From Ridgeia piscesae (taxonomy: Eukaryota > Annelida > Polychaeta > Sabellida > Siboglinidae), in assembly GCA_025642075.2 (NCBI GenBank), contig JAODUO010000626.1, forward strand, positions 124,001 to 188,000: a stretch of 64,000 nucleotides of DNA, in the 5' to 3' direction. The translations under genes and the position numbers were made by a program. Positions 8,747-54,175 of the stretch are shown here, piece after piece (positions within the stretch are counted from its first letter, which is position 1; the number at the start of each line of letters is the position of its first letter). The notes beneath the pieces are model-generated. The model was not told where the DNA came from. It saw only the letters and a list, made by a program, of their open reading frames with translations, and did not search any database.

Positions 8747-8924
8747 GTGAAGAGAAAGTGTCCTTCGCTGGCACCTTTTTTCCTTGTGTCTGGGACAAAG
8801 GTTATCACCTTGGCAGTTGACATGTCACCACCAGTTGACACAGGCCGCAGTCGCATCAACAGGTGAGACGCTTTGGCAGATGTCATCACTGTCTCATCTT
8901 CAGAGATCACCTTCACAGCGAAGT
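8747..8924 (-). CDS. SMCHD1: SMCHD1-like exon 24
   Basis: 58 codons with two-base split codons at both ends; acceptor CATCTAG, donor GTATGT. It contains 'FAVKVISEDETVMTSAKASH' and 'LLMRLRPVSTGG', ending 'GHFLF'. 'F.V.VISED..+....A' followed by 'S.....W/R..STSG' matches SMCHD1. Its first 22 bases plus acceptor are duplicated in the upstream array. Confidence 0.94.
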
Positions 8925-11275
8925 CTAGATGAAATTGACAACAACTTAAGATATCACTTACACAGCAGTCTAGATGAAATTGACAACTTAAGATATAACG
9001 TTCACAGCGAAGCATAAATGAAGAGACAACTTATTAAGAGATCACGTTCACAGTGAAGTCTAGAGGGAAGTGACACCTTGAAAGAGTTCCTCCATGGGGA
9101 AGTCTAGAGGGAAGTGACACCTTGAAAGAGTTCCTCCGTGGGGAAGTTTAGAGGGAAGTGACACCTTGAAAGAGTTCCTCCATGGGGAAGTCTGGAGGGA
9201 AGTGACACCTTGAAAGAGTTCCTTCGTGGGAAAGTCTAGAGGGAAGTGACACCTTGAAAGAGTTCCTCCGTGGGGAAGTCTAGAGGGAAGTGACACCTTG
9301 AAAGAGTTCCTCCATGGGGAAGTCTAGAGGGAAGTGACACGTTGAAAGAGTTCCTCCATGGGGAAGTTTAGAGGGAAGTGTCACCTTGAAAGAGTTCCTC
9401 CGTGGGGAAGTCTGGAGGGAAGTGACACCTTGAAAGAGTTCCTTCGTGGGGTAGTAGTCTAGAGGGAAGTGACACCTTGAAAGAGTTCCTTCGTGGGGTA
9501 GTAGTCTAGAGGGAAGTGTCACTTTGAAAGAGTTCCTCCATGGGGTAGTAGTCTAGAGGGAAGTGTCACCTTGAAAGAGTTCCTCCATGGGGTAGTAGTC
9601 TAGAGGGAAGTGTCACTTTGAAAGAGTTCCTCCATGGGGTAGTAGTCTAGAGGGAAGTGACACTTTGAAAGAGTTCCTCCATGGGGTAGTAGTCTAGAGG
9701 GAAGTGTCACTTTGAAAGAGTTCTTCCATGGGGTAGTAGTCTAGAGGGAAGTGACACCTTGAAAGAGTTCCTCCATGGGGTAGTAGTCTAGAGGGAAGTG
9801 TCACCTTGAAAGAGTTCCTCCATGGGGTAGTAGTTTACAGGGAAGTGTCACCTTGAAAGAGTTCCTCCATGGGGTAGTAGTCTAGAGGGAAGTGTCACCT
9901 TGAAAGAGTTCCTCCATGGGGTAGTAGTCTAGAGGGAAGTGTCACCTTGAAAGAGTTCCTCCATGGGGTAGTAGTCTAGAGGGAAGTGACACTTTGAAAG
10001 AGTTCCTCCATGGGGTAGTAGTCTAGAGGGAAGTGTCACCTTGAAAGAGTTCCTCCATGGGGTAGTAGTTTACAGGGAAGTGACACTTTGAAAGAGTTCC
10101 TCCATGGGGTAGTAGTTTAGAGGGAAGTGTCACCTTGAAAGAGTTCCTCCATGGGGTAGTAGTCTAGAGGGAAGTGTCACCTTGAAAGAGTTCCTCCATG
10201 GGGTAGTAGTTTAGAGGGAAGTGTCACCTTGAAAGAGTTCCTCCATGGGGTAGTAGTCTAGAGGGAAGTGTCACCTTGAAAGAGTTCCTCCATGGGGTAG
10301 TAGTTTAGAGGGAAGTGTCACCTTGAAAGAGTTCCTCCATGGGGTAGTAGTCTAGAGGGAAGTGTCACCTTGAAAGAGTTCCTCCATGGGGTAGTAGTTT
10401 AGAGGGAAGTGACACTTTGAAAGAGTTCCTCCATGGGGTAGTAGTTTAGAGGGAAGTGTCACCTTGAAAGAGTTCCTCCATGGGGTAGTAGTCTAGAGGG
10501 AAGTGTCACCTTGAAAGAGTTCCTCCATGGGGTAGTAGTTTAGAGGGAAGTGACACCTTGAAAGAGTTCCTCCGTGGGGAAGTTTAGAGGGAAGTGACAC
10601 CTTGAACAAGTTCCTCCGTGAGGAAGTCTAGAGGGAAGTGTCACCTTGAACGAATTCCTCCATGGGGAAGTCTAGAGGGAAGTGTCACCTTGAACAAGTT
10701 CCTCCGTGAGGAAGTCTAGAGGCAAGTGTCACCTTGAACAAATTCCTCATTGGGGGAGTCTAGAGGGAAGTGTCACCTTGAACGAGTTCCTCCGTGGGGC
10801 AGTCTAGAGGGAAGTGACACCTTGAACGAGTTCCTCCGTGGGGAAGTCTAGAGGGAAGTGACACCTTGAACGAGTTCCTCCGTGGGGCAGTCTAGAGGGA
10901 TGTGACACCTTGAACGAGTTCCTGCGTGGGGAAGTCTATGGGGAAGTGACACCTTGAACGAGTTCCTCCATGGGGCAGTCTAGAGGGAAGTGACACCTTG
11001 AACGAGTTCCTCCGTGGGGAAGTCTAGAGGGAAGTGACACCTTGAACGAGTTCCTCCGTGGGGAAGTCTAGAGGGAAGTGACACCTTGAACTAGTTTCTC
11101 CGTGGGGAAGTCTAGAGGGAAGTGACACCTTGAACGAGTTCCTCCATAGGGAAGTCTAGAGGGAAGTGACACCTTGAACGAGTTCCTCCATAGGGAAGTC
11201 TAGAGGGAAGTGACACCATGAACGAGTTTCTCCGTGGGGAAGTCTAGAGGGAAGTGTCACCTTGAACAAGATTTT
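8920..11275. repeat. 44-48 bp minisatellite spanning the exon 24 acceptor, about 50 copies
   Basis: Near the exon, three long diverged units copy the acceptor and the first 22 or so exon bases (compare 8903-8930 with 8943-8976 and 9036-9065). Farther units keep the core 'gaagtctagagggaagtg', that is CTAG|ACTTC on the minus strand. Two subfamilies differ by 'gaag' versus 'gtagtag', in blocks. Confidence 0.95.
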
Positions 11276-11412
11276 AGAGATCAAGTAAGTCTTGCAAGAG
11301 AGTAACACCTTAAATCTTTTTTGTCTTTTGTCAAATATTTTTGTCATTTGTTTACAAATCTTACAGCCTATATGTAGCATACATAGTTTGCTATCTGTAA
11401 CAGTTCACATTA

Positions 11413-52268: not shown

Positions 52269-53040
52269 AGGCCAGCCACCTGCATGCTTGTTGAGGCACG
52301 GGTGACACACTAGGAAGTAGGAGTTACAACACTGTGTCTTGTACCAGAGCAAATGCAGTTAACTCCAGCTGGGAAGCTCTGGTAGATAGTGGTGTTGTTT
52401 TGACAATCAGCATGAAGCTTGGCTTTTGTAAAGGTGTGAACACTGTTCTTGGAACTGAGATTAAACTTTAACACCTGAAACCATGTGCTAGTGTCAGAAA
52501 AGGGCAGATAGCTGTTACAACTGATATTTGGCCCCGACAAATATTTCTTTATACTGACAATTCCGTGTCCATCTACTTCGGCAAATTACTGTATTTAAAG
52601 TCGAACTCTAACTTTGCCATAATCATCATTAATAAAGCTACGCAGTATTGCAATTAAAGCCACGGCTAGTAATACAGGATATACGGTACACTGCAACTGA
52701 AAGCAATTACAAATAAAATGTATGAGTATGATTATGAATATGTCCATAACTTCAAAAAAAGTGCTTTATGATAATAAGAATTACTTCTTGACATATAATC
52801 ATATATAATTATCAAGTAGGATTACATCACCAATGTGTCCAAGTATCGTGACAGAAGTAAATGTTACATGTTAGATTGTGTAGGCACAAACTTACTGTGT
52901 AACATCTTTAAAAACGTTTCTGGGTAGTAAAATAGCTAACTTTAATTACTGTCTCAATTGTACAGCAAAATAAACTAATAGCTCTTAATTTGCATTAGTG
53001 GATATTTAAGTACACCATCATAATTGTCATGTTTACGTAC
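52269..53040. other. Intronic sequence downstream of exon 7
   Basis: AT-rich; nothing further was recognised. The stretch 51786-52045 before the LINE is likewise plain and may contain more LINE remnant. Confidence 0.4.
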
Positions 53041-53154
53041 AATGCCAGATGACCTTCAGCTCGACAAGAAGTTTCCTCGATGTTCCTCCAGCTGCTCCAG
53101 GCAGCTTGCTGATGAGTTCGCCCTTGCGATTGGCAATCTCAACCTTGATGGCAC
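53041..53154 (-). CDS. SMCHD1: SMCHD1-like exon 7
   Basis: 37 codons with a 2-base start and a 1-base end; acceptor TCTCCAG, donor GTACGT. It contains 'AIKVEIANRKGELISKLPG' and 'SRKLLVELKVIWH', continuing the beta-sandwich opened by the previous exon. The first 15 bases and the acceptor are copied in every unit of the 57-bp array just upstream (53155-54175). Confidence 0.94.
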
Positions 53155-54175
53155 CTGGAGACACAGGGGACAGTCTAGACACCCTAACCCTACTCCCAAC
53201 CTTGATGGCACCTGGAGACACAGGGGACAGTCTAGACACCCTAACCCTACTCCCAACCTTGATGGCACCTGGAGACACAGGGGACAGTCTAGACACCCTA
53301 ACCCTACTCCCAACCTTGATGGCACCTGGAGACACAGGGGACAGTCTAGACGACCTAACCCTACTCTCAACCTTGATGGCACCTGGAGACACAGGGGACA
53401 GTCTAGACACCCTAACCCTACTCCCAACCTTGATGGCACCTGGAGACACAGGGGACAGTCTAGACACCCTAACCCTACTCCCAACCTTGATGGCACCTGG
53501 AGACACAGGGGACAGTCTAGACACCCTAACCCTACTCCCAACCTTGATGGCACCTGGAGACACAGGGGACAGTCTAGACACCCTAACCCTACTCCCAACC
53601 TTGATGGCACCTGGAGACACAGGGGACAGTCTAGACACCCTAACCCTACTCCCAACCTTGATGGCACCTGGAGACACAGGGGACAGTCTAGACACCCTAA
53701 CCCTACTCCCAACCTTGATGGCACCTGGAGACACAGGGGACAGTCTAGACACCCTAACCCTACTCCCAACCTTGATGGCACCTGGAGACACAGGGGACAG
53801 TCTAGACACCCTAACCCTACTCCCAACCTTGATGGCACCTGGAGACACAGGGGACAGTCTAGACACCCTAACCCTACTCCCAACCTTGATGGCACCTGGA
53901 GACACAGGGGACAGTCTAGACACCCTAACCCTACTCCCAACCTTGATGGCACCTGGAGACACAGGGGACAGTCTAGACACCCTAACCCTACTCCCAACCT
54001 TGATGGCACCTGGAGACACAGGGGACAGTCTAGACACCCTAACCCTACTCCCAACCTTGATGGCACCTGGAGACACAGGGGACAGTCTAGACACCCTAAC
54101 CCTACTCCCAACCTTGATGGCACCTGGAGACACAGGGGACAGTCTAGACGACCTAACCCTACTCCCAACCTTGAT
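53138..54175. repeat. 57-bp minisatellite spanning the exon 7 acceptor, 18 copies
   Basis: On the minus strand each unit has CTGTGTCTCCAG followed by 'GTGCCATCAAGGTTG', identical to the first 15 bases of exon 7. The unit at about 53365 extends the match to 18 bases. Units are almost identical. Because 57 is a multiple of 3, several frames stay open for over 1 kb. Confidence 0.97.

What the first reader, a model, noticed from the sequence alone, without database searches (positions are those of the whole stretch)
8920..54175. Minisatellites whose repeat units straddle exon-intron junctions in eight introns of one gene
In eight separate introns the tandem unit contains the adjacent splice site and 5-34 bases of the adjacent exon: donor type at exons 10, 12, 13; acceptor type at exons 7, 18, 19, 21, 24. 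Exons 9 and 6 may have decayed versions. Array period, sequence and age differ, so these are independent events with the same geometry. One model is that tandem duplications that include a splice site are tolerated, because the exon-proximal copy still gives the correct mRNA. Another is that splice junctions (for example R-loops or stalled polymerase) seed duplication. The effect is introns lined with tens of working-looking splice sites. I know of no described class of junction-seeded minisatellite.
Basis: partly seen in the sequence, partly recalled or inferred. Interest (0 to 1): 0.88.

Follow-up and report, generated by a model that had tools for sequence, protein, structure and literature searches.

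The report
Splice-junction minisatellites in an annelid gene
In one gene of an annelid worm related to deep-sea tubeworms, eight introns carry tandem repeats whose unit copies the exon edge together with its splice site; this kind of repeat is known from amphioxus as "mirages", and it is likely harmless because splicing would still use the copy next to the exon.

Summary
Confirmed: eight introns of one minus-strand gene (SMCHD1, by homology) carry minisatellites (period 31-77 bp, about 4 to 116 copies) whose unit includes the neighbouring splice site and 15-34 coding bases: five acceptors, three donors. Two more lie in the same gene outside the window, and four in three chaperonin genes of the same genome.
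The class is not undescribed: amphioxus "mirages" (Adh3, globins, troponin C, PGBD5) are tandem repeats across exon-intron boundaries (PMC3087553, PMC3902484). This genome is not amphioxus: its proteins are 85% (SMCHD1) and 97% (CCT7) identical to those of Lamellibrachia tubeworms.
The exon-proximal copies keep the peptide of Lamellibrachia in 6 of 8 overlaps exactly, while distal copies decay in the older arrays (stops in 72 of 115 copies in one). That fits tolerance. Over six genes, 14 of 54 intronic arrays cross a junction against 6.1 expected from random placement (P 0.0009). The excess vanishes if founder introns were only 200-300 nt. Junction seeding is suggested, at acceptors only, not proven.

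The parts
53140..54176 (-).
   Evidence: AG in 18 of 18 full copies
53041..53154 (-).
45839..46291 (-).
   Evidence: GT in 14 of 14 full copies
46269..46413 (-).
36319..42173 (-).
   Evidence: GT in 87 of 115 full copies; stops in 72 of 115
42140..42212 (-).
28638..30610 (-).
   Evidence: GT in 44 of 45
30591..30727 (-).
19278..19981 (-).
   Evidence: AG in 9 of 9
19166..19295 (-).
18121..19021 (-).
   Evidence: AG in 17 of 22
18060..18140 (-).
16004..16366 (-).
   Evidence: AG in 9 of 10
15901..16026 (-).
8898..9079 (-).
   Evidence: AG in 2 of 3
8747..8924 (-).

Best explanation
These are junction-spanning minisatellites of the "mirage" type in the SMCHD1 gene of an annelid: a 31-77-bp stretch holding one splice site and 15-34 coding bases is repeated in tandem into the intron, likely born by a local tandem duplication across the exon edge and likely tolerated because splicing would use the exon-proximal copy. 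Shown here: the geometry at eight junctions, at two more in the same gene and at four in three chaperonin genes; a conserved peptide in the exon-proximal copy and decay in the distal copies of the older arrays; a roughly two-fold excess of junction-crossing arrays over random placement, carried by the acceptors. Inferred: the birth step, the later expansion by slippage or unequal exchange, and exon definition as the reason why distal splice sites are ignored. Open: whether 3' splice-site zones seed duplications or the original introns were simply short.
For: Arrays and exon edges coincide. Exon-proximal peptides equal Lamellibrachia in 6 of the 8 window overlaps and differ at 1 of 7 and 2 of 8 codons in the other two; in the 53-bp array 3 of 115 copies keep the peptide and 72 carry a stop. 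Splice dinucleotides look like neutral passengers: over the ten SMCHD1 arrays their identity is above both the exon-part and intron-part means in 3, below both in 3, and tied or between in 4; the donor array at window-scale 77324 keeps GT in 1 of 104 copies. The same geometry occurs in CCT5, in CCT3 and twice in CCT7. No indel lies within 15 residues of any of the eight window junctions in the alignment to P0001. The CCT7 model aligns without a gap over both its junctions to P0121 (98%; 543 aa with a longest contig of 2384 nt, so presumably a transcript) and to Lamellibrachia satsuma P0122 (97%). Excess: 14 of 54 arrays cross against 6.1 expected, P 0.0009; the chaperonin genes alone, not chosen for repeats, 4 of 8 against 1.45, P 0.012.
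Against: The excess depends on the null. With introns capped at 683 nt (median of 49 array-free introns) 7.2 are expected (P 0.007); capped at 300 nt 10.6 (P 0.16), at 200 nt 13.6 (P 0.51). SMCHD1 alone: 10 of 46 against 4.65 (P 0.013), or 5.7 with the cap (P 0.048); under a first array filter 10 of 48 against 5.7 (P 0.043). Donor crossings alone are not in excess (5 against 3.0, P 0.17). Decay is not seen in every array: all 18 and all 9 copies of the 57-bp and 77-bp arrays keep the peptide, and stops occur in 4 of the 8. No RNA from this species was available, so use of distal copies is untested. In an acceptor array the distal copies are transcribed first, yet more arrays cross acceptors than donors (9 to 5, not significant), which a first-come model of tolerance does not predict.
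Confidence: 0.75

Rival explanations
1. No junction bias: minisatellites start anywhere in introns, and some founders overlap an exon edge by chance; those are tolerated and noticed because they look striking.
For: By eye, the exon share of the unit varies freely (7 to 38 bases of units of 27 to 77). Expected crossings rise to 10.6 and 13.6 of 54 if founder introns were at most 300 or 200 nt long. Later insertions lengthen present introns (piggyBac-type frames in one).
Against: 14 crossings against 6.1 expected with present introns and 7.2 with a 683-nt cap; 25 of 54 arrays have an edge across or within 35 nt of an exon edge against 12.4; the chaperonin genes repeat the excess.
Confidence: 0.35
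2. Splice junctions, above all the 3' splice-site zone, actively seed tandem duplication (polymerase stalling, R-loops, or slippage in the tract before the acceptor).
For: Acceptor crossings 9 of 54 against 3.0 expected (P 0.002); nine further arrays end 5-32 nt before an acceptor, against 3.6 expected within the tested zone (P 0.008).
Against: Donors show no excess, crossing 5 against 3.0 (P 0.17) or near 3 against 3.6 (P 0.72). Acceptor against donor edges, 18 to 8, is only p = 0.076. No clear R-loop-like skew. No mechanism was tested.
Confidence: 0.2
3. The repeated splice sites are selected as regulatory decoys or as a reservoir of alternative splicing.
For: 200 of 236 full copies in the window keep GT or AG; in 3 of 10 arrays the dinucleotide is better kept than both parts of the unit.
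Against: In 3 of 10 arrays it is worse kept than both parts, and in one it is lost in 103 of 104 copies. Stops occur in copies of 4 of the 8 window arrays. 6 of the 8 window periods are not multiples of 3, so most distal use would shift the frame.
Confidence: 0.04
4. Assembly artefact.
For: Long arrays are hard to assemble; no raw reads could be checked.
Against: The contig of 262 kb carries many arrays, the eight with 74 to 99% match between copies, and intact exons between them; the same geometry occurs in four genes on four contigs.
Confidence: 0.03

Closest known systems
Amphioxus 'mirages' (Adh3; globins BflGb6 and BflGb9; also troponin C and PGBD5) - PMC3087553 (passages read), PMC3902484 (passage read); the original Canestro et al. 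2002 (PMC117041) is not held and is known here only through those papers
   Same: [quoted passage not shown] many but not all copies keep AG/GT; splicing reported undisturbed there
   Different: Annelid, not cephalochordate; up to 116 copies; ten in one gene; a placement null was computed here; copy-number instability not tested here
Human variable internal tandem repeats at exon-intron boundaries (PMC2812944, passages read)
   Same: Minisatellite-size tandem repeats at a boundary that can alter gene structure; the one report outside amphioxus that I saw touching exon-intron boundaries
   Different: Genes in primate segmental duplications, repeats partly exonic, novel introns proposed; the passages do not describe arrays of repeated splice sites running into the intron
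Intron gain by tandem duplication of AGGT-bearing exon sequence (PMC4974935, listing and start of abstract only; also discussed in PMC3087553)
   Same: Tandem duplication that copies splice signals
   Different: Here the arrays lie inside introns that a related protein also skips; no new intron was demonstrated
Ordinary intronic minisatellites, e.g. in earthworm metallothionein intron 1 (PMC12783039, passages read)
   Same: Annelid introns swollen by minisatellites
   Different: The passages read report no splice site or exon edge in the repeat unit

Membership tests
Mirages (as described for amphioxus in PMC3087553) | Tandem repeat unit spans an exon-intron boundary | tested here: met
   8 of 8 in the window, 14 in all under the filters used
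Mirages (as described for amphioxus in PMC3087553) | Minisatellite-size unit (10-160 bp reported there) | tested here: met
   31-77 bp in the window; 27-54 bp in chaperonin genes
Mirages (as described for amphioxus in PMC3087553) | Many but not all copies contain AG/GT splice signals | tested here: met
   200 of 236 full copies in the window
Mirages (as described for amphioxus in PMC3087553) | Normal mRNA splicing is not disturbed | tested here: inconclusive
   No RNA of this species; a relative's CCT7 (543 aa, contig 2384 nt) runs across both CCT7 junctions; SMCHD1 rests on a database protein of Lamellibrachia
Mirages (as described for amphioxus in PMC3087553) | Copy-number instability between alleles | not testable with these tools
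   No second haplotype or reads
Mirages (as described for amphioxus in PMC3087553) | Found in cephalochordates (scope so far, not structure) | tested here: not met
   Closest named proteins are of Lamellibrachia, an annelid tubeworm: 947 of 1115 codons (84.9%) for SMCHD1, 97% for CCT7
Intron gain by tandem duplication | A new intron arises inside a formerly continuous exon | not tested
   Intron positions of relatives were not available

The most novel reading that the evidence does not exclude
Splice junctions, above all 3' splice-site zones, are birthplaces of minisatellites across Bilateria: duplications that copy a splice site escape selection, expand, and lengthen introns, so that junction-born arrays account for a sizeable share of intron growth (here 23.5 of 133.9 kb of intron sequence in six genes, most of it in SMCHD1) and leave introns lined with ready-made splice sites from which new introns or exons could arise.
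Probability: 0.25. Interest if true: 0.75.

Novelty: new member of a known kind. Interest (0 to 1): 0.5.

Why it matters
It carries a curiosity that my searches found described as a class only in amphioxus into a distant phylum, with larger arrays and a placement test. If junctions really seed minisatellites, intron growth and intron gain would share a mechanism that can be tested with existing long-read genomes. It also supplies natural cases of tens of near-identical splice sites in a row of which, presumably, only one is used: a clean test of exon definition against first-come splice-site choice.

Tried and rejected
Relocated junction units elsewhere: of 39 non-crossing arrays tested at both junctions, 4 of 78 tests had p < 0.02 against about 1.6 expected by chance, not pursued. 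R-loop skew: no clear difference. p450 cluster as a paralogue test of array birth: the 20 kb fetched (L027, L028) hold no array of period 10 or more above 2.2 copies, so nothing to compare; exons there were not modelled. Cytochrome oxidase search to name the species: the tool was busy each time. A green-fluorescent-protein search to test for amphioxus was busy too and was dropped once protein similarity settled the taxon. A last protein search for SMCHD1 transcripts of close relatives returned 13 proteins, P0001 being the only one above 61% identity. Genome-wide count: not possible, because letters from the genome are capped. Passages on C. elegans minisatellites and alternative splicing (PMC4039745) and on tubeworm genome statistics (PMC9921365) held nothing on junction-spanning repeats.

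Rows dropped before counts: doubtful terminal blocks of the CCT models (CCT4 first; CCT5 last two; CCT3 first and last two; CCT1 first). One of them, a CCT3 3' block, overlaps arrays at its apparent donor and is left out because its end is unreliable. In the N- and C-terminal SMCHD1 alignments short, weak or terminal blocks were left out. One SMCHD1 intron over 15 kb was skipped (88 introns, 87 counted). Arrays under period 15, score 80 or 2.5 copies were not counted; this drops a 470-bp two-copy duplication across an acceptor in CCT5. Array clusters use the smallest overlapping TRF period, which for at least three crossing arrays (SMCHD1 donor outside the window, CCT5, one CCT7) is below the true unit; one search corrects the two CCT values only.
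Full report
Gene and organism. The window lies on a 262-kb contig of a 628-Mb genome. Peptides from minus-strand open frames match SMCHD1: the N-terminal part hits the SMCHD1 structure 6mw7 at E 1.4e-125, and the best of 541 database hits (120 listed) is the SMCHD1 protein of a Lamellibrachia tubeworm. 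The 28 joined exons read 1126 aa without a stop. 947 of 1115 aligned codons are identical (84.9%); a 757-aa query covering the eight junctions is 86% identical over its whole length. CCT7 is 97% identical to Lamellibrachia satsuma. So the organism is an annelid close to tubeworms; the species was not identified.

The observation. TRF lists the arrays. Each of the eight crosses its junction, with 15-34 exon bases in the unit, and the printed copies show exon edge, splice site and intron repeated, raggedly in the most diverged arrays. Two more such arrays lie in the same gene outside the window: the donor at window-scale 77324 (period 41, 104 copies, GT kept in 1 of 104) and the donor at -30931 (period 52, GT kept in 46 of 48). 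The decayed versions proposed at two other exons find no support.

Not confined to one gene. CCT7 has two acceptor-type arrays (44 bp x 52; 48 bp), CCT5 one (27 bp x 34), CCT3 a small one (54 bp x 3.3); CCT1 and CCT4 have none. CCT5 also has a 470-bp two-copy duplication, 96% alike, spanning an acceptor and 107 exon bases: a plausible first step of such an array, not counted.

Is it more than chance? A founder unit placed uniformly over an intron and its edges will sometimes cross a junction. Over 87 introns of six genes 54 arrays qualify; 14 cross by at least 5 nt against 6.1 expected (P 0.0009), and 9 cross acceptors against 3.0 (P 0.002). 25 have an edge across or within 35 nt of an exon edge, against 12.4 (P printed as 0.0000 from 50,000 simulations). 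Donors alone show no excess: 5 crossing against 3.0 (P 0.17) and 3 near against 3.6 (P 0.72). CCT genes alone: 4 of 8 against 1.45 (P 0.012); SMCHD1 alone: 10 of 46 against 4.65 (P 0.013), or 10 of 48 against 5.7 (P 0.043) under a first array filter. With intron length capped at 683 nt, the median of 49 array-free introns, the total is 14 against 7.2 (P 0.007); at 500 nt P is 0.02, at 300 nt 0.16 and at 200 nt 0.51. The bias is therefore present against today's introns, and unproven if the founders arose in very short introns.

How it likely works. Distal copies of the older arrays are free of coding constraint: in the 53-bp array 72 of 115 copies carry a stop and 3 keep the peptide, while the exon-proximal copy equals Lamellibrachia. 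The 57-bp and 77-bp arrays are too uniform to tell (18 of 18 and 9 of 9 copies keep the peptide); the other five lie between. Related proteins pass over the junctions without insertion: P0001 for all eight window junctions (no indel within 15 residues), P0121 and P0122 for both CCT7 junctions. P0121 is 543 aa with a longest contig of 2384 nt, while the modelled part of the gene here spans about 9 kb, so that contig is presumably a transcript (inferred; the source label is not explained). The most likely history is a local tandem duplication across an exon edge, neutral because the exon-proximal splice site and the exon body remain, followed by expansion and homogenisation. Exon definition would explain why distal acceptors, which are transcribed first, are ignored; this is inference. 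Splice dinucleotides are better kept than both parts of the unit in 3 of 10 arrays and worse in 3, which gives no sign of selected decoys.

Compared with the known. Amphioxus 'mirages' are tandem repeats across exon-intron boundaries, reported in Adh3 and globins (passages of PMC3087553) and in troponin C and PGBD5 (passage of PMC3902484), with splicing reported undisturbed. The structural features tested here are met. My literature searches (a library of open papers only, and searches listed 25 of 54 and 10 of 19 papers) showed no such class outside amphioxus; the nearest is a human study in which variable tandem repeats at exon-intron boundaries may form new introns (passages of PMC2812944). 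A subscription paper could hold a case. The finding is thus a new member of a known kind in another phylum, with larger arrays and a placement test, not a new class.

Noticed in passing
   Followed up: partly
   Followed up: no
window 61867-62898 and 63618-64000: Two arrays of nearly the same 47-bp unit separated by about 720 bases of other sequence.
   Followed up: no
L030 7548-8482: 470-bp tandem duplication (2 copies, 96% alike) in CCT5 spanning an acceptor and 107 exon bases; the extra copy lies in the intron.
   Followed up: partly
L027, L028, L029, L033: A p450 cluster stretch and the CCT4 and CCT1 loci are almost free of minisatellites, so the load differs greatly between genes of this genome; the 238 kb held of the SMCHD1 contig are 47% tandem repeat.
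   Followed up: no
window 7280-7634: 355-bp (AGAGGG)n-type microsatellite in an SMCHD1 intron.
   Followed up: no
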